Notes under the pieces: generated by a model | Databases searched by the model: none | The model's input: only the letters and a program-made list of their open reading frames with translations | Told to the model about the DNA's origin: nothing | In this document: piece by piece, positions 18,385-31,363 of the stretch | Numbering within the stretch: position 1 is the first letter of the stretch | Layout of the letters: every line of letters starts with the position of its first letter | Made by a program: the position numbers and the translations under genes | Origin: Pseudomonadota bacterium | GTDB lineage: Bacteria > Pseudomonadota > Gammaproteobacteria > Steroidobacterales > Woeseiaceae | Assembly (NCBI GenBank): GCA_022573655.1 | Contig: JACZTO010000009.1 | Coordinates: 30,561 to 65,831, forward strand | DNA length: 35,271 nucleotides | Direction: 5' to 3'

Positions 18385-19488
18385 ATGCGCATCCTTCTTG
18401 TCTTGGGGATTCCAGGTCTCGCAATCGTTTTAGTGATCGCGATGCTGGGAATGCGCCATGAACCGCCCAAAAAGGAACGGGATACTCTCGACCCGCTTGT
18501 CGCTGTCACCGAGCTGGTGCCTATGACAACCAACTTTGAGGTTCGCAGCCAGGGCACGGTTCGCCCTTTGACCGAAACGGTATTGGGGGCCGAAGTATCC
18601 GGAACGATTATCGATATCTCACCGAAGTTCGTCTCCGGCGGTGTCTTTCGGGCCAACGAAGAGCTTTTGCGGATTGATCCGAGCAACTATTCGGTTGCGG
18701 TCGACCAGGCTGTAGCACTGGTCAGGCAACGCCAGATCGAATTCGACGGCGCCAGGAAACTCAAGAGTCAGGGCTATCGCGCCGAGTCAGAATACGCATC
18801 AGCAGCTGCTGTGCTTGCCTCTGCAAAGGCTGAATTGGTGCGTGCCAATCGAAATCTGGAGCGGACACACATTCGCCTGCCTTACGAGGGTATCGTGCGC
18901 AGCAAAGAAGTGGATCTGGGGCAATTCGTAGGTCTCGGAACTCGGTTAGGAGTGGTTTTCGCCACCGATTACGCGGAAGTCCGGCTGCCTTTAACGGATC
19001 TCGACCTGGCGTTCGTCGATCTGCCCGGCGCGGCTGACTTAATGGCCTCGGGACGCGTCGACGGACCAGCTGTGACTCTGACCGCTATTCAGAAAGGTCG
19101 TCCCGAGTCCTGGGCGGCAAGAATTGTACGCACGGAGGGTGTTGTTGATGAGAATAGTCGCGTGACCTATGCCGTCGCGCGCATCAAAGACCCATACGCG
19201 CTGCGCACTGATGGCAAGGTACTTCCGGTTGGCACATTTGTCGCCGCCATCATTCAAGGTATGGTTGCCGAAGACGTGATGCGGGTTCCGCGGAGCGCCG
19301 TTCGTGGGTCCGACGAGCTTGTTTTTGTGACTGAAGACAACAAAATTCAAATTCGAAGCGTTGAGATCATTCGTTCGGATTCGGAATACTCCTATTTCCG
19401 CGTTGGGGCGAGCGCGGGCGAGCGTATTGTCGTCTCTGCGTTTGAATCTCCCATCAATGGAATGACGGTACGCACGGAAGAGAGATGA
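18385..19488 (+). CDS. RND efflux membrane-fusion (adaptor) protein
   Basis: 367 residues. The ATG at 18385 has GAGGAT about nine bases upstream. A hydrophobic N-terminus (3-23) serves as uncleaved anchor or signal. The adaptor layout follows: first half of the lipoyl domain (V-R-S-Q-G-T-V-R-P and A-E-V-S-G-T-I), a short helical hairpin (A-V-A-L-V-R-Q-R-Q to A-K-A-E-L-V-R-A-N-R-N-L-E), second lipoyl half (T-H-I-R-L-P-Y-E-G-I-V-R), then beta-barrel and membrane-proximal domains. The hairpin is short, as in adaptors that bridge to TolC with little extension. The ATGA overlap with the pump gene makes the pair one operon. No outer-membrane TolC gene is present here. Confidence 0.93.
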   Translation: MRILLVLGIPGLAIVLVIAMLGMRHEPPKKERDTLDPLVAVTELVPMTTNFEVRSQGTVRPLTETVLGAEVSGTIIDISPKFVSGGVFRANEELLRIDPSNYSVAVDQAVALVRQRQIEFDGARKLKSQGYRAESEYASAAAVLASAKAELVRANRNLERTHIRLPYEGIVRSKEVDLGQFVGLGTRLGVVFATDYAEVRLPLTDLDLAFVDLPGAADLMASGRVDGPAVTLTAIQKGRPESWAARIVRTEGVVDENSRVTYAVARIKDPYALRTDGKVLPVGTFVAAIIQGMVAEDVMRVPRSAVRGSDELVFVTEDNKIQIRSVEIIRSDSEYSYFRVGASAGERIVVSAFESPINGMTVRTEER

Positions 19489-22400
19489 ACCGACCGGGCA
19501 AAACAGACGAGAAAGGCATCATCGCGTGGTTTGCAGCAAATCATGTTGCAGCGAATCTGTTGATGTTGTTTATCGTCGTCGCCGGAATAATTTCGATATT
19601 TACGATTCGTAAACAGACCACGCCGGATTTCGAACTCAACACTATCCAGGTGCGGGTTGCATACCTGGGTGCGGCGCCGCAAGAGGTCGAAGAGGGTGTC
19701 GTTGTCAAAGTCGAAGAGGCGATCCAGGACGTCAAGGGAATCGTCAAGCTGACGGGTCGCGCCACTGAAGGAAGCGGTACCGTTACAGTAGAAGTTGCGT
19801 CGAGCGCCGATATTAATGAAGTCTTGAACGAGATCAAGACCCGGGTCGATGCGATTTCAACGTTTCCCGGGCTCACAGAAAAACCTGTTATCTACAAGCA
19901 AGAAATTCCGATCCACGTTGTTTTCCTTGCGATTCACGGGGCTCTGGACGAATTCTCACGCAAGTCGATCGCGCATGAAGTGCGCGACGAACTGATGCAG
20001 TTGCCAGCCGTATCCACGGTGGAGTTTCTGGGCGACCGGCCTTATGAAATCAGTATTCAGGTATCCGAACATGTACTGCGACAGTACAACTTGACGATGA
20101 GCGAGATTTCACAAGCTATCAAGAACTCGTCAGTCGACATGCCAGGCGGCACGATCAAATCTGACAGCGGCGACATTCTGTTGCGGACCGAGGGACAAGT
20201 TTATACCGGTCAGGATTTTGGCTCACTTGTATTGCGGACCTTTCCTGACGGCACACGGCTTATCTTAAGTGACATTGCCAATATTACTGATGGTTTCGTC
20301 GAAACGGATGGCTACGGGCGTTTCGACGGCGAACGTACTGCGACTCTGCGTGTGCTCGCGAGCGGAGAGCAAAACGAACTGACGACTGCGGCGGCCGTTA
20401 GAAAATATGTTGCAGAGAAATCGTTGACGCTACCCGACGGCGTAAAAATGGATATCTGGATCGACCGCTCACATTATCTCAAAGGGCGGCTGCAGATGAT
20501 GGGCGGCAACATGTGGCAGGGTGCGCTACTGGTTTTCATCATATTGTCGATGTTCTTGCGCATGAAAGTGGCCATGTGGGTCGTAGTCGGTATTCCAATA
20601 ACGTTCATGGGCGCGATGGCGTTGATGCCCTACGGTCCCTGGCCTGTGACTATCAATATGATGAGCCTGTTCGGCTTCATCATTGTTCTCGGCATCGTTG
20701 TCGATGATGCAATTATTATTGGCGAGAGTGTTTATACGAAAATACGGGCTGACGGTCATACGCTCGACAATGTTATTCGTGGCGCGCACGAAGTTGCGAT
20801 ACCGGCGACATTCGGGGTACTCACGACGATTGCAGCGTTCGCGCCGTTACTGTTTATTGGTGGTATCGCGGGGCCGTTCTTCGAGGCTATATCAATGGTT
20901 GTTGTGCTCTGCCTGTTTTTTTCACTGGTTGAGTCCAAACTAATATTGCCTGCGCATCTGGTCCACGCAAACATCAAACCGATCGATGAAGAGGATCTTT
21001 TTAACCCACAGCGGCATATCGGGATTTGGGAGAGAATTCCGCGTGTTTTTCTACGCTTTCAGCGTCGTGTCCAACACGGATTGGCTGCGCTGATCGAGAA
21101 TTGGTACCGGCCATGGCTGGAGCGTGTCGTGGACAATCGCGGACTGACGACTTCGATCTTTGTAGCCATGTTGATATTGACTTTCGGTGCATTGGCGAGC
21201 GGATTCGTGAAGTTCGAGATTTTTCCGGATCAACCCAGCGATTTTCTCCGCGTAGATCTTGAAATGCAGGCCGGGTCTCCGCCAAGCGAGCGTAGCAGGG
21301 TGCTTGGCATACTCGAAGATACCGTTCTCCAAATGAACGCCGAATACGTTGCGGAGCATCCGGATACGTTACCCATGCTGCAGCATGTTGGCGCATTTAC
21401 GCGTGGCGAAAACAGTGCCGTAATCTTTGTTGAAATGCCGCAGTCTGAGGACCGACCCTTTAACGGTGACGATATCACCAGGATCTGGCGCGAGCGTGTC
21501 GGTGAGATTGCAGGCGTCAAGGAAATGGATTTCAATGATGCCGACCACTTTGGTGGAGGGCCACCCTTGAGTTTTCGCCTGAGCGGTGAGAATTACACCG
21601 TTCTGGAAGCTGCGGCTGCCGATCTCGAGGATGAACTTGCAGAATACGCCGGCATTTATGACATTCGAAATTCAGCCGATACTGGCGGCGAAGAGATACG
21701 CCTGAAAATCAAGCCGGAGGCGGAGGCGCTCGGGTTAACCATGTCGTCATTAGGGCGCCAGGTGAGACAGGCGTTTTATGGCGAAGAAGCGCAGCGAATT
21801 CAACGTGGCAAAGACGAATTAAAGGTCATGGTGCGTTACCCGCGTTCGGAGCGTCGCTCGATTGCGGATCTGGAAAACATGCGGATACGGACGCCGAATG
21901 GTGATGAAGTCCCGTTCAGTGCGGTGGCCGACATGTCGTTTGGTATAGGGTATTCGAGCATTTCACGACTCAATCGCAGCCGGACAGTTACCGTCTCCGC
22001 TGACATAGACACTGAAATTGTCGAATCGGCGGAGATCGTAAAGACGATTTCCGAGGAGTTCATTCCCGAGCTTCTGGCCCGACATCCAGGTGTCAGTTAT
22101 GGATTGGAGGGTGCGAGTCAGGAGCAGGTCAACCTGATTAGAAATTTGAGCATTGCGTCATTGGCCGCGCTGTTCCTGATTTATGCGCTGATTGCAATTC
22201 CCCTTCATTCTTATAGTCAGCCCTTGATTATCATGTCCGTGATTCCCTTTGGGATGATCGGCGCGGTCATTGGCCATGTCATCATGGGCAGGTCCGTCAG
22301 TATGTTTTCGCTTTTCGGCCTGGTTGCGCTTGCGGGTGTTGTTGTCAATGACAGTCTTATCATGATCGATTTCATCAACAAAGCCCGTGAGAAGGGCATG

Positions 22401-22679
22401 GAACTCAAACAAGCGGTGATCGAATCTGGAACGAAACGCTTTCGGGCGATCATCCTGACGTCGATAACCACCGCGGCCGGACTAATGCCGATCATGCTGG
22501 AGGGCAGCCTGCAAGCTCAGTCAGTAATCCCGATGGCGATCTCGCTGAGCTTCGGTATCATATTTGCAACCGTTATTACGCTGTTCCTGATTCCGTCGCT
22601 TTATATGCTGCAGGTCGACTTCTTCGCACGCATGCGACAATTCAAGGGGTGGTTGCTGAGTCCTTTACACAGTGCATGA
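19485..22679 (+). CDS. RND efflux pump permease (AcrB/HAE1-like)
   Basis: 1064 residues, full length. The protein has TM1 near 24-44, a large periplasmic loop, TM2-6, TM7, a second loop and TM8-12. The proton-relay acidic pair is present in TM4 as D407 and D408 (G-I-V-V-D-D-A-I-I-I-G-E), the same numbers as in AcrB, so it should be a proton-driven antiporter. The second-half counterpart is V-A-L-A-G-V-V-V-N-D-S-L-I-M-I-D-F. The sequence is closest in style to the many environmental HAE1-like RND pumps rather than AcrB itself; the substrate is unknown. It begins inside the adaptor stop (ATGA) and overlaps rarD by eight bases. Confidence 0.95.
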   Translation: MNRPGKTDEKGIIAWFAANHVAANLLMLFIVVAGIISIFTIRKQTTPDFELNTIQVRVAYLGAAPQEVEEGVVVKVEEAIQDVKGIVKLTGRATEGSGTVTVEVASSADINEVLNEIKTRVDAISTFPGLTEKPVIYKQEIPIHVVFLAIHGALDEFSRKSIAHEVRDELMQLPAVSTVEFLGDRPYEISIQVSEHVLRQYNLTMSEISQAIKNSSVDMPGGTIKSDSGDILLRTEGQVYTGQDFGSLVLRTFPDGTRLILSDIANITDGFVETDGYGRFDGERTATLRVLASGEQNELTTAAAVRKYVAEKSLTLPDGVKMDIWIDRSHYLKGRLQMMGGNMWQGALLVFIILSMFLRMKVAMWVVVGIPITFMGAMALMPYGPWPVTINMMSLFGFIIVLGIVVDDAIIIGESVYTKIRADGHTLDNVIRGAHEVAIPATFGVLTTIAAFAPLLFIGGIAGPFFEAISMVVVLCLFFSLVESKLILPAHLVHANIKPIDEEDLFNPQRHIGIWERIPRVFLRFQRRVQHGLAALIENWYRPWLERVVDNRGLTTSIFVAMLILTFGALASGFVKFEIFPDQPSDFLRVDLEMQAGSPPSERSRVLGILEDTVLQMNAEYVAEHPDTLPMLQHVGAFTRGENSAVIFVEMPQSEDRPFNGDDITRIWRERVGEIAGVKEMDFNDADHFGGGPPLSFRLSGENYTVLEAAAADLEDELAEYAGIYDIRNSADTGGEEIRLKIKPEAEALGLTMSSLGRQVRQAFYGEEAQRIQRGKDELKVMVRYPRSERRSIADLENMRIRTPNGDEVPFSAVADMSFGIGYSSISRLNRSRTVTVSADIDTEIVESAEIVKTISEEFIPELLARHPGVSYGLEGASQEQVNLIRNLSIASLAALFLIYALIAIPLHSYSQPLIIMSVIPFGMIGAVIGHVIMGRSVSMFSLFGLVALAGVVVNDSLIMIDFINKAREKGMELKQAVIESGTKRFRAIILTSITTAAGLMPIMLEGSLQAQSVIPMAISLSFGIIFATVITLFLIPSLYMLQVDFFARMRQFKGWLLSPLHSA

Positions 22680-26127: not shown

Positions 26128-26811
26128 TCAGCGGCGCAGGATGGCGAGCCATCTTGCAATATTGAGCAAGCTCATCAGCGACGCTGACACGTAAGTGAGG
26201 GCGGCTGCGGTCAACAGTCGGTGCGCGTGCGGCTTGTCGGCGGCTTTCAAGATGCCGTGTTCTTCGAGCATGGGCAACGCCCGCTTGAAACTCGCGTCAA
26301 ATTCGGTCGGTAAAGTGATGAAATGGATGAGCGCCGATGTTCCAAGCGTTAACATGCCGGCTGCAAACATGAGTAGTCCCAGGGCAGGGACACGAGTAAA
26401 AAAGCCGAGAAAAGGCGATATCATCAGTATGCCCGCGCCTATTTTCTCCATGCCGCTTGTTGCCCTCACCAGTCGCGTACGCCAACGCAGAGGCGCAAAG
26501 TGACTTTGGTCCTGCAATGCATGGCCAACTTCATGAGCGGCAACTGTGATGGCGGTTAGCGAGTGCCCGTCGAACTTGTCCGGCGTCAGGCGCACGGCTT
26601 TTTCGACAGGGTCGTAATGATCACCGAGCTCGCTAGCTTCAACGGCGACCGACTCAAGGCTGTGTTTATCCAACAGATGTCGGGCCAGTTCTGCGCCTGT
26701 CCCGGAATAGCGATCCGCAGGTTGGCTGTATTTTTTGAGCACTCGCTGCACCCAAATGCTGGGCCCGAAAATGATCAGCAAGACGACGATGACGATGATG
26801 ATGTAGGCCAT
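26128..26811 (-). CDS. Membrane zinc metallopeptidase, YugP/PF04298 family
   Basis: 227 residues from the ATG at 26811 (M-A-Y-I-I-I-V-I-V-V); a GTG at 26844 would add 11. A first hydrophobic helix (3-22) is followed by a soluble part with the zinc-binding motif A-A-H-E-V-G-H-A-L-Q (H93, E94, H97), then membrane segments at about 120-145, 147-170 and 205-222. The E-F-D-A-S segment near 180 fits the third zinc ligand. This is the normal YugP size and layout. Its substrate is unknown. It is probably a single-gene unit, divergent from the tandem-paralogue operon. Confidence 0.92.
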   Translation of the reverse strand: MAYIIIVIVVLLIIFGPSIWVQRVLKKYSQPADRYSGTGAELARHLLDKHSLESVAVEASELGDHYDPVEKAVRLTPDKFDGHSLTAITVAAHEVGHALQDQSHFAPLRWRTRLVRATSGMEKIGAGILMISPFLGFFTRVPALGLLMFAAGMLTLGTSALIHFITLPTEFDASFKRALPMLEEHGILKAADKPHAHRLLTAAALTYVSASLMSLLNIARWLAILRR

Positions 26812-26952
26812 CGGGATATCGTAGCGCGGTTTGCGCAGCAACACCCCGCTGAACGCCAGTTCAGGTTTCGTTCAGTACCAAGTCCGTAGAGTTGGTGTAT
26901 AAAGTACTTGAGAGCTTGGCAAAAAAACACAAACTGCTCAAGTCTAGGGATG

Positions 26953-26987: not shown

Positions 26988-27602
26988 ATGAAGCGGACCG
27001 TACTCGCACTTTTCATTAGCGTGACCTTATTTGGCAGTGATATTGTGCTGGCGGCCAAATCCGAATGTAAGATCGCACAAGATTCCGTTGACGATTTTAC
27101 TCATGAACACGTGGTGGTTACCGAATGGGAGGGACTTAGTCATCCCGTTCGTCCGGGCGGGAGAGAAATGACTGGCTTCGTGTCGGCCGTATCTAACGGG
27201 GACGGCCATTTTCTTCGCGTGAATATAGAACACTTTTGGTCCAAGAGGACTCTTCCGACTGAAGACGACATGCAGAACTCGATTTCTGTTGCGGAGGGAG
27301 CTGAACTTCTGGTCGCGATGGTCGATGGATCGGTGGTCACGCTGCAAGCATCCAAGGCAACGGTTGGCAAGACGACGATTGAAGATAGACCAAAGCCACA
27401 CTCTGGCGATAGCTTTTGGCTTATGACGAAAGCAACTGCTCACTACGCGTTGAACGATGCCAACGAGCAGGTGTTAACAGCTCAAGGTTCAAAAGCCTTG
27501 CGAATGACAACCGAATCCGGAAACCGCGATTTGCGCTTTTATAGCAAGAGCTTTGACGAGATTTCGAGAGTCATTAAGTGCGTCACGGGAGCAATGAAAT
27601 GA
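26988..27602 (+). CDS. Exported two-cysteine protein, tandem paralogue 1 of 4
   Basis: 204 residues; no known family recognised. A Sec signal peptide covers 1-22 (M-K-R-T-V-L-A-L-F, ending V-L-A-A). The mature protein has exactly two cysteines: one in S-E-C-K directly after cleavage and one in I-K-C-V seven residues from the end, suited to a terminal disulfide. The shared core motif is L-P-T-E-D-D-M, then V-A-E-G-A-E-L-L-V-A-M-V-D-G-S-V-V-T-L (about 89-118), followed by A-H-Y-A-L near 153 and F-D-E-I-S-R-V-I-K-C at the end. The ATG has GGGAGAAG upstream. The stop overlaps the next start (ATGA). A periplasmic or outer-membrane-associated role is inferred from the signal peptide only. Confidence 0.85.
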   Translation: MKRTVLALFISVTLFGSDIVLAAKSECKIAQDSVDDFTHEHVVVTEWEGLSHPVRPGGREMTGFVSAVSNGDGHFLRVNIEHFWSKRTLPTEDDMQNSISVAEGAELLVAMVDGSVVTLQASKATVGKTTIEDRPKPHSGDSFWLMTKATAHYALNDANEQVLTAQGSKALRMTTESGNRDLRFYSKSFDEISRVIKCVTGAMK

Positions 27603-28174
27603 AACGGAATCTAATTGTTATTTTCGCAATTACGACGCTGTTGAGTGGTGAAGCCGTGTTGGCCGCCAAGTGCAAATTTCGGGAAGACATGGACGACATG
27701 TTTAGCGGCGCTCCCACGCTGCGAACGGCATGGAATAAGAATGATGGCGTCATATCGGCAGTAAAAGAACCTGGTGAGCAGTGGTTGGAGGTCAAGGTTT
27801 CGTACACTAGAAAATCCAAATTCTTACCAACGCAAGCAGAACTGAATACTGCAATGGTCGTGGCAAAAGGCGCGAACCTCGAAGTCACGCTTAAGGACGG
27901 GTCGATCGTCGAACTGCCGGCGCTTGAAATGGTGAAGGGTTCGACAAGAATCGGGTATCCGTATCAGGGTGGAAATAATGACTACGCGACCTTCGTTAGA
28001 TTGACGCCTCGCTACGTGCTAAGCGAAAGTGCGATCAGCGCTCTGGGTGCGCAAAACGCCACAAGAGTTCGGGTTCACGGCCAGAATCAGCACCAGGATA
28101 TTACGATTCCAAAAAGGGGATTCAAGCAGATCAAGGAGGCGGTTACTTGCCTACGACAGGGAGAATCAAAATGA
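27599..28174 (+). CDS. Exported two-cysteine protein, tandem paralogue 2 of 4
   Basis: 191 residues; unknown function. The signal peptide (1-22, M-K-R-N-L-I-V-I-F, ending V-L-A-A) is similar to that of paralogue 1. The two mature cysteines lie in A-A-K-C-K-F and near the end in E-A-V-T-C-L. The common motif is L-P-T-Q-A-E-L-N, then V-A-K-G-A-N-L-E-V-T-L-K-D-G-S-I-V-E-L, followed by P-R-Y-V-L and R-V-R-V. The ATG at 27599 sits in ATGA overlap with the previous stop and has GGGAG seven bases upstream; an earlier in-frame ATG at 27578 lies inside gene 1 and is rejected. It is shorter than paralogue 1 between the motif and the C-terminal block. Confidence 0.85.
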   Translation: MKRNLIVIFAITTLLSGEAVLAAKCKFREDMDDMFSGAPTLRTAWNKNDGVISAVKEPGEQWLEVKVSYTRKSKFLPTQAELNTAMVVAKGANLEVTLKDGSIVELPALEMVKGSTRIGYPYQGGNNDYATFVRLTPRYVLSESAISALGAQNATRVRVHGQNQHQDITIPKRGFKQIKEAVTCLRQGESK

Positions 28175-28989
28175 ATAGCTTCATAAGGATAGGTCTGGCC
28201 GTCGCGATGCTTTGCGGAACCCAATATGCCGACGCGAAAGGTTGCAAGGTGATCACAGGTTCCGTTGATGAAAGAACGGGCGCGAAATTGATTTACACGA
28301 AATATGACAAGTTGGTCACCATGTTCAACATGGGCGTCGACAACAATGGTGCGAGGTCGCTCGGGTCTGTATCCGTTCTAGCCAGGGACAATGAAAAGTT
28401 TCTGGTTTTCCAGTTGAAAACAGGCGATTACCATGCGATGCCAGAGCAGTTCGCCGCCCTGAAAGATCCGACATGGGATCCGGATCATCGCGATTTCCTG
28501 GATATGTTGCTGGGTGATTCAGTCATTTTCCCTGCCGGGTCGTCATTGCGGCTGACGCTGGACGACCGGTCGACAGTCGTCCTGCATACGGCCAATCATC
28601 GTAGAGTCAGGGCTGACTTCACAGTGCCTGGCGCCGTTCCGCGTGCACAAGGGACCGAGAAAAAAGCGGTGAAAAAGCTGGGCGGATTTCTGGCCAAAGT
28701 GCTCGAAAAGGCGGCGGCAAAAGACGGTTGGGAAACGGTGGAGGAAGAAGCCAGCCCTCACTACCTTGTCCGGGCGACTGCGAGACTCGAGTATCCACTG
28801 GACGCCGAGACCGAAGCATTGTTGAAGAGAGCCGGGGTAATCAGCGCACGAATAGAGGCCAGGGATCGCTACTACACCTTGGGTTGGCGCAACACGCAAA
28901 ACGTCACGGCCTGGAGTAACAAGTCTAACTACAAGATTCGCGACGCGTTGAATTGCGTCGATAACGCCGTGGCCAGGAGCAAAGGATGA
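28171..28989 (+). CDS. Exported two-cysteine protein, tandem paralogue 3 of 4 (with insert)
   Basis: 272 residues, the longest of the four. The signal peptide is 1-22 (ending Y-A-D-A-K). Mature cysteines are in K-G-C-K-V and near the end in L-N-C-V. The shared motif appears as F-P-A-G-S-S-L-R-L-T-L-D-D-R-S-T-V-V-L. After it comes an extra segment of about 50 residues, rich in Lys, Ala and Glu (E-K-K-A-V-K-K-L-G-G-F-L-A-K-V), absent from the other copies and likely an amphipathic helix. The C-terminal block returns with L-E-Y-P-L-D-A-E-T-E-A-L-L and Y-K-I-R-D-A-L-N-C-V. The start at 28171 is in ATGA overlap with gene 2 and has GGGAG seven bases upstream. Confidence 0.84.
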   Translation: MNSFIRIGLAVAMLCGTQYADAKGCKVITGSVDERTGAKLIYTKYDKLVTMFNMGVDNNGARSLGSVSVLARDNEKFLVFQLKTGDYHAMPEQFAALKDPTWDPDHRDFLDMLLGDSVIFPAGSSLRLTLDDRSTVVLHTANHRRVRADFTVPGAVPRAQGTEKKAVKKLGGFLAKVLEKAAAKDGWETVEEEASPHYLVRATARLEYPLDAETEALLKRAGVISARIEARDRYYTLGWRNTQNVTAWSNKSNYKIRDALNCVDNAVARSKG

Positions 28990-29561
28990 AGACTTTCAGT
29001 GCATTATTGATCGCCGTATTCATTGCTTTTTCTGCCACTACTTCATACGCAGCCAGTTGTAAGTATCAGGTTGATACCGTGAGTTACGCGAGCGGAGAAA
29101 AGATTCGCTGGACTCGCTGGAAGATGAATCGAATGTTTCACACCGGATCTTACAGTTTGATATCCGGGATCGCGGAAGGCGATAGAAAGTATCTCGGTGT
29201 ACAACTGGTGGATTCGAGCAAGAAAGCGAGCAGCCGGCCGACCAAGGCGGAACTCGATGTCATGATGGTCATTCCTGCAGGCGCCAAGCTATCGCTCCTG
29301 ATGGCAGACGAATCGATTGTCGATTTGTTCACGGAACAGGACGTCGTCGCTGACTCGGACTTTACGACCAATGCAGTGGACAGCTATACCATTGAATCAG
29401 CGGTGGTCATCAAGTTTCCGCTGAGCGCAGAGGCTTTCGCGGCGTTGTCGACACAAAAAGTCATGGACGTGAGGTTGCACACCGATCAAAGACAATACGA
29501 CTATTCGTTCGGCAAGAAGGGGTCTGACAAGATTCAAGACGCATTAGGCTGTATTCTGTAG
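28986..29561 (+). CDS. Exported two-cysteine protein, tandem paralogue 4 of 4
   Basis: 191 residues; unknown function. The signal peptide is 1-22 (ending S-Y-A-A-S). Mature cysteines are in A-S-C-K-Y and in the last residues, L-G-C-I-L. The common motif is R-P-T-K-A-E-L-D, then I-P-A-G-A-K-L-S-L-L-M-A-D-E-S-I-V-D-L, and the C-terminal block is I-K-F-P-L-S-A-E-A-F-A-A-L and D-K-I-Q-D-A-L-G-C. The ATG at 28986 overlaps the stop of gene 3 (ATGA), with GGAGCAAAGG upstream. The last of the run, it is followed after 26 bp by the SLC13 permease gene on the same strand. Confidence 0.85.
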   Translation: MKTFSALLIAVFIAFSATTSYAASCKYQVDTVSYASGEKIRWTRWKMNRMFHTGSYSLISGIAEGDRKYLGVQLVDSSKKASSRPTKAELDVMMVIPAGAKLSLLMADESIVDLFTEQDVVADSDFTTNAVDSYTIESAVVIKFPLSAEAFAALSTQKVMDVRLHTDQRQYDYSFGKKGSDKIQDALGCIL

Positions 29562-29587
29562 GGACCTGATAACCTCTTGAGGCGCTC

Positions 29588-31363
29588 ATGACGCCCGACC
29601 AATTAACGCTGTTTGGGCTGCTGTTCTTCGTTTTTGTCTTTCTGATATGGGGCCGCTGGCGCTACGACCTGGTCGCGTTCGTCGCCTTGCTCATCGCGTT
29701 GCTGACGGGCGTCGTTCCCAAAGAGCAGGCCTTTTCGGGTTTTGGCCATCCGGCTACGGTCATCATTGCATTGGTCTTGATCATCAGCCGGGGATTGTCC
29801 AATTCCGGCGCGATAGAACTTGTCGCGCGACATGTCGTCGACGCATCGCGCAAACTTGCCAGTCACATTGCGATCATGTCGGGGTTGGCAGCCGCTTTGT
29901 CCGCGCTCATGAACAATGTTGCGGCATTGGCATTATTGATGCCGGTCGATTTGCAAGCGGCGAAGAAAGCAGGGCGGAGTCCTTCTCTGTCACTCATGCC
30001 GTTGTCATTCGCCTCGATACTCGGCGGCATGATTACGCTGATCGGTACGCCGCCGAACATTGTGATTGCAGAGTTCCGTGGTGCGGAACTGGGTGAGCCG
30101 TATCGCATGTTTGATTTCGCGCCGGTGGGACTCGTCTGTGCGGTCGTGGGTGTGGCTTACGTGGCATTAATTGGCTGGCGCTTGTTGCCGGCCGAGCGCA
30201 AAGCGTCGGACGCGGGCAAAGAGCTGTTCGATCTTGCCGACTACATCGCCGAAGTTCGCGTGCCTGAAGGCTCTGCGATTATCGGCAAGCGAGTACGCGA
30301 GCTGGACGCGCTCGCCGCAAAAAGTGACATCGAGATCGTAGGGCTGAGCCGCAAAGGTCGTCGCTTGCCGGGCCTCGCACGTATTGCCGAAATCAAGGCA
30401 GGGGACGTCCTCGTTATCGAAGCGAGTCCCGACAGTCTGGAAGAAGCGCTTGGCGCCTTGGGTCTTGAGTACGTCGGCAGCGGGGAAGGGCAGCTTGGTG
30501 CCGATGACCTGCTGCTGACCGAGGTGGTCGTCCAGGAAACATCGCGCCTCGCTGCGCGGTCGGCAATGTCTTTGCGTCTCTTGTATCGCTATCGAGTGGC
30601 GCTGGTTGGGGTCTCGCGTCAGGGTCAGCGTTTCCGCGAAAACGTGCGCAAACTCAACCTGCATCCGGGTGATGTCCTGCTGTTGCTCGGTAGCGAAGAA
30701 CGGTTGGGAGACGTGACGGGGCGTCTCGGTCTGCTGCCGCTTGCGGATCGCGGACAACGCGTCATTCAGCGTGATAAAGCCTGGTGGGCCGTCGGCATCT
30801 TTGCGACGGCGATTATTGTCGCCAGCTTTGGACTCGTCTATTTGCCCATCGCGCTGGGCTGCGCAACGGCCCTCTACGTGTTGCTGAACATCGTGCCAAT
30901 TCGCGATGTTTACACATCGATCGAGTGGCCGGTCATCGTCCTGCTGGGTGCCATGATTCCGATAGGCAGTGCTTTGCAATCCACCGGTGGAACGGCATTG
31001 ATTGCAGGTGGCATCGTCGATTTGTCAGCTGGTTATTCGCCGGTCGTTGTTCTGACGCTGTTAATAATCGTGACCATGACCTTGTCCGATGTCATGAACA
31101 ATACGGCAACGGCAGTCATTGCTGCACCAATCGCTCTGGAGATTGCCACACGACTGGAGGTGAACCCGGATCCGTTCCTGATGGGAGTGGCAGTCGCGGC
31201 GTCGTGTGCATTCCTGACACCCATCGGACACAAGAACAACACATTGATCATGGGGCCCGGCGGCTACCGCTTTGGTGATTACTGGCGCATGGGGCTACCA
31301 CTGGAGATCCTGATCATCGCTGTTTCCGTTCCTGCGATCGTTACATTCTGGCCGATGAATTGA
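29588..31363 (+). CDS. SLC13/DASS-family permease with two TrkA-C domains
   Basis: 591 residues, similar in length and layout to E. coli YfbS. The N-terminal membrane half (about 5-205) contains S-A-L-M-N-N-V-A-A-L-A-L-L-M-P-V and I-G-T-P-P-N-I-V-I-A. Two cytoplasmic TrkA-C (RCK_C) domains sit in the middle (about 220-295 and 310-385; V-R-E-L-D and A-G-D-V-L-V-I-E, then N-L-H-P-G-D-V-L-L-L-L). The second membrane half (about 395-590) carries the matching D-V-M-N-N-T-A-T-A-V and T-P-I-G-H-K-N-N. The family imports anions such as dicarboxylates or sulfate with sodium; the RCK_C domains suggest ligand gating. The anion cannot be named. It lies 26 bp after paralogue 4, so it may be cotranscribed. 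Confidence 0.92.
   Translation: MTPDQLTLFGLLFFVFVFLIWGRWRYDLVAFVALLIALLTGVVPKEQAFSGFGHPATVIIALVLIISRGLSNSGAIELVARHVVDASRKLASHIAIMSGLAAALSALMNNVAALALLMPVDLQAAKKAGRSPSLSLMPLSFASILGGMITLIGTPPNIVIAEFRGAELGEPYRMFDFAPVGLVCAVVGVAYVALIGWRLLPAERKASDAGKELFDLADYIAEVRVPEGSAIIGKRVRELDALAAKSDIEIVGLSRKGRRLPGLARIAEIKAGDVLVIEASPDSLEEALGALGLEYVGSGEGQLGADDLLLTEVVVQETSRLAARSAMSLRLLYRYRVALVGVSRQGQRFRENVRKLNLHPGDVLLLLGSEERLGDVTGRLGLLPLADRGQRVIQRDKAWWAVGIFATAIIVASFGLVYLPIALGCATALYVLLNIVPIRDVYTSIEWPVIVLLGAMIPIGSALQSTGGTALIAGGIVDLSAGYSPVVVLTLLIIVTMTLSDVMNNTATAVIAAPIALEIATRLEVNPDPFLMGVAVAASCAFLTPIGHKNNTLIMGPGGYRFGDYWRMGLPLEILIIAVSVPAIVTFWPMN

What the first reader, a model, noticed from the sequence alone, without database searches (positions are those of the whole stretch)
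26988..29561. Operon of four tandem, translationally coupled paralogues of an unrecognised exported two-cysteine family
Four genes in a row are joined by ATGA overlaps at 27599, 28171 and 28986. Each encodes a signal peptide, then a mature protein with exactly two cysteines, one right after the cleavage site (C-K) and one within the last few residues before the end (A/I-x-x-C). All share G-A/S-x-L-x-[LV]-x-x-x-D-x-S-x-V-x-L in the middle and a final block with I-x-x-A/V-x-x-C. Sequence between motifs is strongly diverged, so this is an old, retained expansion; copy 3 has a Lys/Ala-rich insert. Fixed order and tight coupling suggest a hetero-oligomer or defined stoichiometry. I know no described family like this. 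The common fold and the terminal disulfide are inference.
Basis: partly seen in the sequence, partly recalled or inferred. Interest (0 to 1): 0.78.

Follow-up and report, generated by a model that had tools for sequence, protein, structure and literature searches.

The report
Ordered cassette of exported paralogous proteins
Four neighbouring genes make four distant cousins of one small exported protein that no protein-family catalogue searched here describes; the same set, in the same order, turns up in a few related bacteria, so the four probably do one job together, but that job is not yet known.

Summary
Four ATGA-coupled genes encode exported paralogues whose mature parts carry exactly two cysteines, one near each end. 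Homology is solid: profiles built without each gene's own clade still find W_A, W_B, W_C and W_D at 2e-43, 1e-37, 6e-20 and 1e-44. Pfam, NCBIfam, PHROGs, PADLOC and PDB sequences gave no convincing match. AlphaFold models of W_D (pLDDT 91.5) and mature W_C (85.1) share one order of main strands and helices; Foldseek found no PDB chain at E<=0.001. New here: six genomes of the order carry 3-7 copies each, 30 in all, always clustered. A-B-C-D occur in that order at four of four loci that hold all four, each as its own clade; recent duplication in the window is rejected (p 9e-55). The cluster is accessory (5 of 73 genus genomes), lower in GC than its surroundings at six loci, and sits between two core genes that are neighbours without it at 21 of 29 relatives' loci. 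Relatives occur in Bacteroidota. Function is unproven. Best guess: non-interchangeable subunits of one exported assembly; main rival: separate binding, inhibitor or immunity proteins.

The parts
26988..27602 (+). W_A, position A: exported paralogue, 204 aa, Cys 27 and 198
27599..28174 (+). W_B, position B: exported paralogue, 191 aa, Cys 25 and 184; ATGA overlap with W_A
28171..28989 (+). W_C, position C: exported paralogue, 272 aa, with a Lys/Ala-rich insert; mature Cys 25 and 262; ATGA overlap with W_B
28986..29561 (+). W_D, position D: exported paralogue, 191 aa, Cys 25 and 189; ATGA overlap with W_C
26128..26844 (-). Left flank: putative neutral zinc metallopeptidase (Zn_peptidase_2, PF04298), divergent from the cassette; not part of it
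   Evidence: Pfam E 1.2e-66; next to the permease at 21 of 29 other genus permease loci held
29588..31363 (+). Right flank: CitMHS/TrkA_C permease starting 26 bases after W_D; not part of the cassette, read-through possible
   Evidence: Pfam; found in 60 of 73 genus genomes, own included, at E<=1e-100

Best explanation
The four genes are an accessory gene cassette that encodes an ordered set of paralogous exported proteins. Shown by computation: one homologous family; the same A-B-C-D order with orthologous positions in other genomes; a place between two genes that are neighbours in most relatives examined; Bacteroidota relatives; no catalogued family found. Supported by two models only: a shared fold of mostly beta strands closed by a C-terminal helix that carries the second Cys. 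Inferred: the proteins leave by Sec and signal peptidase I, are oxidised in the periplasm so that the N-terminal Cys pairs with the Cys in the C-terminal helix, and are made together from coupled genes because they act together. The mechanism I commit to is that A, B, C, D (and the further positions where present) are non-interchangeable subunits of one periplasmic or extracellular assembly, built by duplication of a protein that stands mostly alone in Bacteroidota. I put the descriptive part at about 0.9 and the hetero-assembly at about 0.4; the confidence below is for the latter.
For: Leave-clade-out homology. 30 copies in 6 genomes, 3-7 per genome, no genome of the order with a lone full-length member. 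A, B, C and D each form a supported clade (100/99, 94/87, 97/93, 98/94) and occur in the same order at four of four loci that have all four; C is followed directly by D at six of six loci. Recent duplication in the window rejected, p 8.6e-55. 17 of 23 junctions overlap. Two models with matching order of main strands and helices. Only the two Cys columns are invariant over 43 sequences, a set collected with profiles and a DNA pattern that contain the first Cys. Neighbouring flank genes without cassette at 21 of 29 relatives' loci. Bacteroidota members occur alone, as dispersed copies or in tandem pairs.
Against: Nothing shows physical contact between the products; no complex prediction was possible. 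The set varies (A-D in the window and G044; A-D plus three divergent genes in G014; A-D plus E, F and a G-like gene in G288; C-D-E-F plus one in G012; a G-like gene with C and D in G262), so not every position is needed everywhere, although G012 and G262 run into contig ends. Orthologues are very diverged (W against OFTM88: 34-51 % identity; the permease of the same two genomes: 89 %), which would also fit a binding or conflict role. The terminal disulfide is not measured, and 6 of 59 relatives lack one or both Cys.
Confidence: 0.4

Rival explanations
1. The paralogues are a repertoire of separately acting periplasmic binders, inhibitors or immunity proteins, each with its own partner, kept side by side in an accessory island.
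For: Accessory and patchy (5 of 73 genus genomes); variable set size of 3-7; large divergence of orthologues; lower GC than surroundings at 6 of 6 loci; no gene family shared by the flanks of several loci other than one beta-lactamase-like family in two of them; in G044 it lies in a tRNA cluster with an integrase-like gene on the far side of tRNA-Arg.
Against: Order and one-to-one orthology of A-D at four of four loci, and C-D at six of six, are stricter than I would expect of an immunity array (judgement). No toxin or effector neighbour was recognised among the window genes scanned or by eye in the other loci. No convincing PADLOC match.
Confidence: 0.35
2. The products are secreted factors, for instance a multi-component antagonistic or surface-active protein, acting outside the cell.
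For: Signal peptides, disulfide-ready ends, accessory distribution.
Against: No convincing match to any named family or solved fold; a Bacteroidota relative is fused to a TonB C-terminal domain (L173), which points to the periplasm.
Confidence: 0.12
3. Redundant gene amplification with no division of labour.
For: Tandem paralogues often arise this way (general knowledge).
Against: Orthologue clades by position shared across genomes, open frames, paralogue split older than the genomes compared.
Confidence: 0.04

Closest known systems
Unnamed exported proteins of Bacteroidota (e.g. L076, L063, L069, L064)
   Same: Signal peptide, C-[KR]-[YF] start, D-x-[FI]-T-G motif, C-terminal Cys; significant with a profile made only from the order's members, and 11 of 16 relative ORFs outside the order still match at E<=1e-3 with a profile that lacks the N-terminal motif
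   Different: One gene, dispersed copies or a tandem pair; most of those compared are shorter (about 155-200 aa); no A-D positions; some lack terminal Cys
FecR-like / putative anti-sigma proteins (PDB 4m0h, 4m0n; locus L101)
   Same: A short local similarity around the L-x-x-x-D-x-S-x-V-x-L hairpin: PDB 4m0n E 0.043 with profile A5; an ORF that looks FecR-like by eye, L101, matches positions 77-130 at E 2.8e-4 and 1.7e-5
   Different: Local only; 4m0n is E 1.1 with the order-only profile and absent; no Pfam FecR match for members; not among the listed Foldseek matches
BFVD model A0A1B0WMU9 (unnamed viral protein, 149 aa)
   Same: Only structural match at E<=0.001 in the viral library for W_D: E 1e-4, probability 1.00
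   Different: TM 0.42/0.53, 7 % identity, no name or function at hand
PDB 3fjv (protein of unknown function, Burkholderia pseudomallei)
   Same: Foldseek probability 0.91 for W_D
   Different: E 0.057, TM 0.33; not among the 50 listed matches of W_C

Membership tests
The un-named terminal-Cys exported family defined here | Significant profile match over the mature protein | tested here: met
   W_A-W_D 5.6e-20 to 1.2e-44 with own clade left out
The un-named terminal-Cys exported family defined here | Cys near both ends of the mature protein | tested here: met
   4 of 4 in the window, 30 of 30 in the order. In a wider set of 59 rows that I chose: 53 both, 3 neither, 3 one only, within 3 columns of the aligned place
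The un-named terminal-Cys exported family defined here | Common fold | tested here: met
   same order of main strands and helices in the W_D and W_C models, judged from the DSSP lists; no superposition possible, W_A and W_B not modelled
FecR-like / anti-sigma factors | Significant match over the family's domain | tested here: not met
   no Pfam FecR match; only short local similarity
PepSY_like (PF11396) | Score above Pfam's gathering threshold | tested here: not met
   one of 14 Bacteroidota-set members at E 0.003, 18.3 bits against 28.3 needed
DUF3157 (PF11355) | Match by the members | tested here: not met
   1 of 14 members, E 3.6e-4, the best Pfam value; none of 4 window proteins at E<=10 nor of 20 members at E<=1. 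Which member it was is not printed
Lipoproteins (signal peptidase II) | Lipobox before the first Cys | tested here: inconclusive
   by eye, no predictor run: residue before Cys is often K, E, D, Q or R, which argues against it (W_A SEC, W_B AKC, W_C KGC); W_D (AASC) and a few others cannot be excluded. LPAM_1 matched 1 of 20, E 0.36
Known anti-phage defence proteins | PADLOC model match | tested here: not met
   two models, one member each of 43, best E 0.018
Hetero-oligomeric assembly | Physical interaction of the products | not testable with these tools
   single-chain prediction only
N-to-C-terminal disulfide protein | The two Cys within bonding distance | not testable with these tools
   no coordinates returned; co-occurrence test underpowered

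The most novel reading that the evidence does not exclude
A horizontally spread gene cassette builds an exported hetero-oligomeric structure from four to seven paralogous subunits of a protein family with no described fold or function, the subunit order being conserved in the genome, evolved from a protein that stands mostly alone in Bacteroidota.
Probability: 0.3. Interest if true: 0.75.

Novelty: new variant of a known kind. Interest (0 to 1): 0.5.

Why it matters
It defines a protein family, found in Bacteroidota and in one gammaproteobacterial order, that the family libraries searched here do not contain, and it supplies a natural test case: the same domain mostly as a lone gene in one phylum and as an ordered set of 3-7 diverged copies in another. 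If the set forms one assembly, it is a clean example of a lone protein turned heteromeric and carried as a unit. If not, it is an unusual accessory array of binding or immunity proteins in a group that I recall as common in marine sediments.

Tried and rejected
Named families: Pfam on the 4 window proteins, 20 members, 14 of the Bacteroidota set and 10 distant ones; NCBIfam on 4 and 43; PHROGs and PADLOC on 43; PDB sequences. Weak matches were single members of single families: best Pfam 3.6e-4 (DUF3157), best PHROGs 3.7e-4 and 4.8e-4 (families without function), best NCBIfam 0.0056; ExtJ matched two members at 0.06, over the signal peptide. The one strong Pfam hit (TonB_C in L173, 4e-9) is a fused second domain. 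A FecR-like ORF (L101, by eye) matched the profile locally and I treat it as a chance or local likeness. Foldseek against PDB for W_D and W_C gave nothing at E<=0.001. Phage or plasmid origin: tblastn of two members in plasmids and three in phages gave nothing better than E 0.3; W_D found no relative in viral contigs; 2 of 3 viral contigs with the DNA pattern hold a relative.

Transfer of the cassette between families: in C and D the G044 copies group with the window's inside the genus, but holding the genus rows together is not rejected (p 0.21 for C, 0.096 for D), so it stays a suggestion. Disulfide by co-loss: 53 both, 3 neither, 3 one only, too few independent changes to test. An island boundary in G044: no copy of the tRNA-Arg end was found on the far side of the cassette beyond the likeness of other tRNA genes. 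Shared neighbours: of 246 flank ORFs of at least 100 aa, five matches between loci, three of them antisense frames of the cassette (by eye) and two to one beta-lactamase-like gene of L050. Promoters and terminators: no more than in shuffles. Papers: three searches, listings with abstract openings only, no paper opened; none listed describes such a family. That is weak evidence of absence.
Full report
WHAT IS THERE. The window holds four + strand genes, W_A 26988-27602, W_B 27599-28174, W_C 28171-28989 and W_D 28986-29561, each overlapping the next by ATGA. Each product begins with a signal peptide followed closely by Cys-Lys, and ends with I-x-x-[AV]-x-x-C near the C-terminus; the mature parts have two cysteines and no more. 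W_C carries a Lys/Ala-rich insert.

ONE FAMILY. Inside the genome W_D finds W_B at 4e-14 and W_A at 7e-7, but W_C only at 0.6-1.1. The strict test was to build a profile from the 30 known members of the order minus the tested protein's whole orthologue clade: W_A 1.6e-43, W_B 1.2e-37, W_C 5.6e-20, W_D 1.2e-44, with none of 476 background ORFs reported at E<=10.

OTHER GENOMES. Counts include the window's own genome: 4 of 60 relatives; 6 of 296 genomes drawn from the order (one, G084, is only a 31-residue match over the signal peptide at 3.9e-4 and I do not count it); 5 of 73 genomes of the genus; 1 of 369 of the class and 1 of 398 of the phylum, that one being the window's own. Six genomes carry true members: the window's, G014, G012, G262 and G288 in one genus, and G044 in another family of the order. 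Copy numbers are 4, 7, 5, 3, 7 and 4, 30 in all, clustered in each. G012 and G262 run into contig ends, so their sets may be larger.

ORDER AND ORTHOLOGY. The tree of the 30 members plus 7 outside rows (five from records titled Bacteroidota, one uncultured bacterium, one viral contig) gives clades A (4 rows, 100/99), B (4, 94/87), C (6, 97/93), D (6, 98/94), F (3, 98/98) and further pairs. The rows of a clade sit at the same place in each cluster: A-B-C-D in the window, G014, G044 and G288; C-D also in G012 and G262. G288 has seven genes in a row; G014 has A-B-C-D and, divergent from it, three more, the middle one F. Holding the four window proteins together as one clade is rejected (p 8.6e-55), so the duplications are older than the split of the copies compared. 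Neighbouring genes overlap at 17 of 23 junctions, with start codons chosen by me.

ACCESSORY CASSETTE. The flanking genes are a Zn_peptidase_2 protein and a CitMHS/TrkA_C permease. The permease is found in 60 of 73 genus genomes, of which 30 loci were handed out. Of the 29 that are not the window's, 21 have the peptidase gene on the other strand just upstream of the permease, too near for a cassette between them: in 20 the gap is under about 0.3 kb, in L136 about 0.75 kb. The other 8 show no peptidase match within the 1.5 kb or less that was held. In the ten intergenic stretches printed, no duplicated target site was evident to the eye. GC of the cassette is lower than its surroundings at six of six loci, by 1.5 to 5.6 points (for the window the comparison is with the whole window, for the others with flanks on one or both sides). 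No gene family is shared by the flanks of more than two loci. In G044 the cluster lies between tRNA-Arg and tRNA-His, with an integrase-like gene (by eye) on the other side of tRNA-Arg. W and OFTM88 orthologues are 34-51 % identical, the permease of the same two genomes 89 %: fast evolution or separate acquisition.

RELATIVES IN BACTEROIDOTA. A DNA pattern of the N-terminal motif hit 28 stretches in genome contigs and 3 in viral contigs. With a profile made only from 20 members of the order, 15 of 28 and 2 of 3 hold a relative at E<1e-5; 13 of 28 do not (one, L055, reaches 0.0014 and looks like a dehydrogenase). Of the 15, two are the known clusters of G012 and G014, 12 bear Bacteroidota titles and one is an uncultured bacterium. 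Because the pattern selects for the N-terminus, I repeated the search with a profile lacking it: 11 of the 16 relative ORFs outside the order still match at E<=1e-3, best 4e-11. Samples of the phylum to which the Ancylomarina genome (L074, G710) belongs gave 6 of 247 (narrower profile) and 27 of 395 (wider profile, 2 of the 27 genomes having given rows to it); the samples overlap. Members there are single, dispersed or in tandem pairs (L076, L082), and some are fused to other parts, one to a TonB C-terminal domain. The 30 proteins of the order form one clade against 29 outside rows (99/87).

CYSTEINES AND FOLD. Over 43 sequences only two columns are invariant, the two terminal Cys; three further pattern-found relatives were left out of that set (L052, L058, L074). 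In a wider set of 59 rows that I chose (fusion proteins left out, the 21 near-alike Bacteroidota loci represented by four), 53 have both, 3 neither, 2 only the C-terminal and 1 only the N-terminal one; the independent-pairs test has too few changes to decide. AlphaFold2 with 29-row alignments gave W_D pLDDT 91.5, pTM 0.83 and mature W_C pLDDT 85.1, pTM 0.81, lower in parts of its inserts. Both lists contain, in order, strands, a long strand, helix, three strands, a long strand, helix, two strands and a final helix; W_C adds a short strand and several helices, mostly in its inserts. The first Cys precedes strand 1 and the second lies in the last helix. Foldseek found no PDB chain at E<=0.001 for either and, for W_D, one unnamed viral model at 1e-4. 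W_A and W_B were not modelled, and the models could not be superposed.

INTERPRETATION. The orthologous positions, the fixed order, the coupling and the clustered presence say that the members are not interchangeable and tend to be kept together. The simplest reading is joint action as subunits of one exported assembly. The accessory, strongly diverged nature fits a repertoire of binders or immunity proteins almost as well, and nothing here measures contact. I therefore leave the mechanism at 0.4 against 0.35 while regarding the anatomy as settled.

NOVELTY. No library searched names the family, and three literature searches (listings only) brought nothing on it. Tandem paralogue operons of exported proteins are a familiar kind of arrangement (general knowledge), hence 'new variant of a known kind', built from an un-catalogued family.

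Noticed in passing
   Followed up: partly
L173/L106 and L105/L169/L175: The family domain is fused to a TonB C-terminal domain in L173 and follows a long, coiled-coil-like N-terminal part in L105/L169/L175 (by eye).
   Followed up: no
L027 2672-3916 and 4249-7474 (G044): The cassette lies inside a tRNA cluster (Arg, cassette, His) with an integrase-like gene beyond tRNA-Arg.
   Followed up: partly
L102, L103: Two relatives without the N-terminal Cys have an inner C-x-G-C-G motif, perhaps a different disulfide or a metal site.
   Followed up: no
L026 10013-10621 (OFTM_B): One orthologue has an extra Cys pair four residues apart (Cys 53 and 57).
   Followed up: no
L101 943-2190 (G710): An ORF that looks FecR-like by eye matches the family profile locally at 2.8e-4 and 1.7e-5; shared hairpin or chance.
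   Followed up: no
window 18385-22679: HlyD-type adaptor and AcrB-type efflux pump pair.
   Followed up: no
window 29562-29587: Only 26 bases and no terminator-like match separate W_D from the permease, so the cassette may now drive the permease.
   Followed up: no
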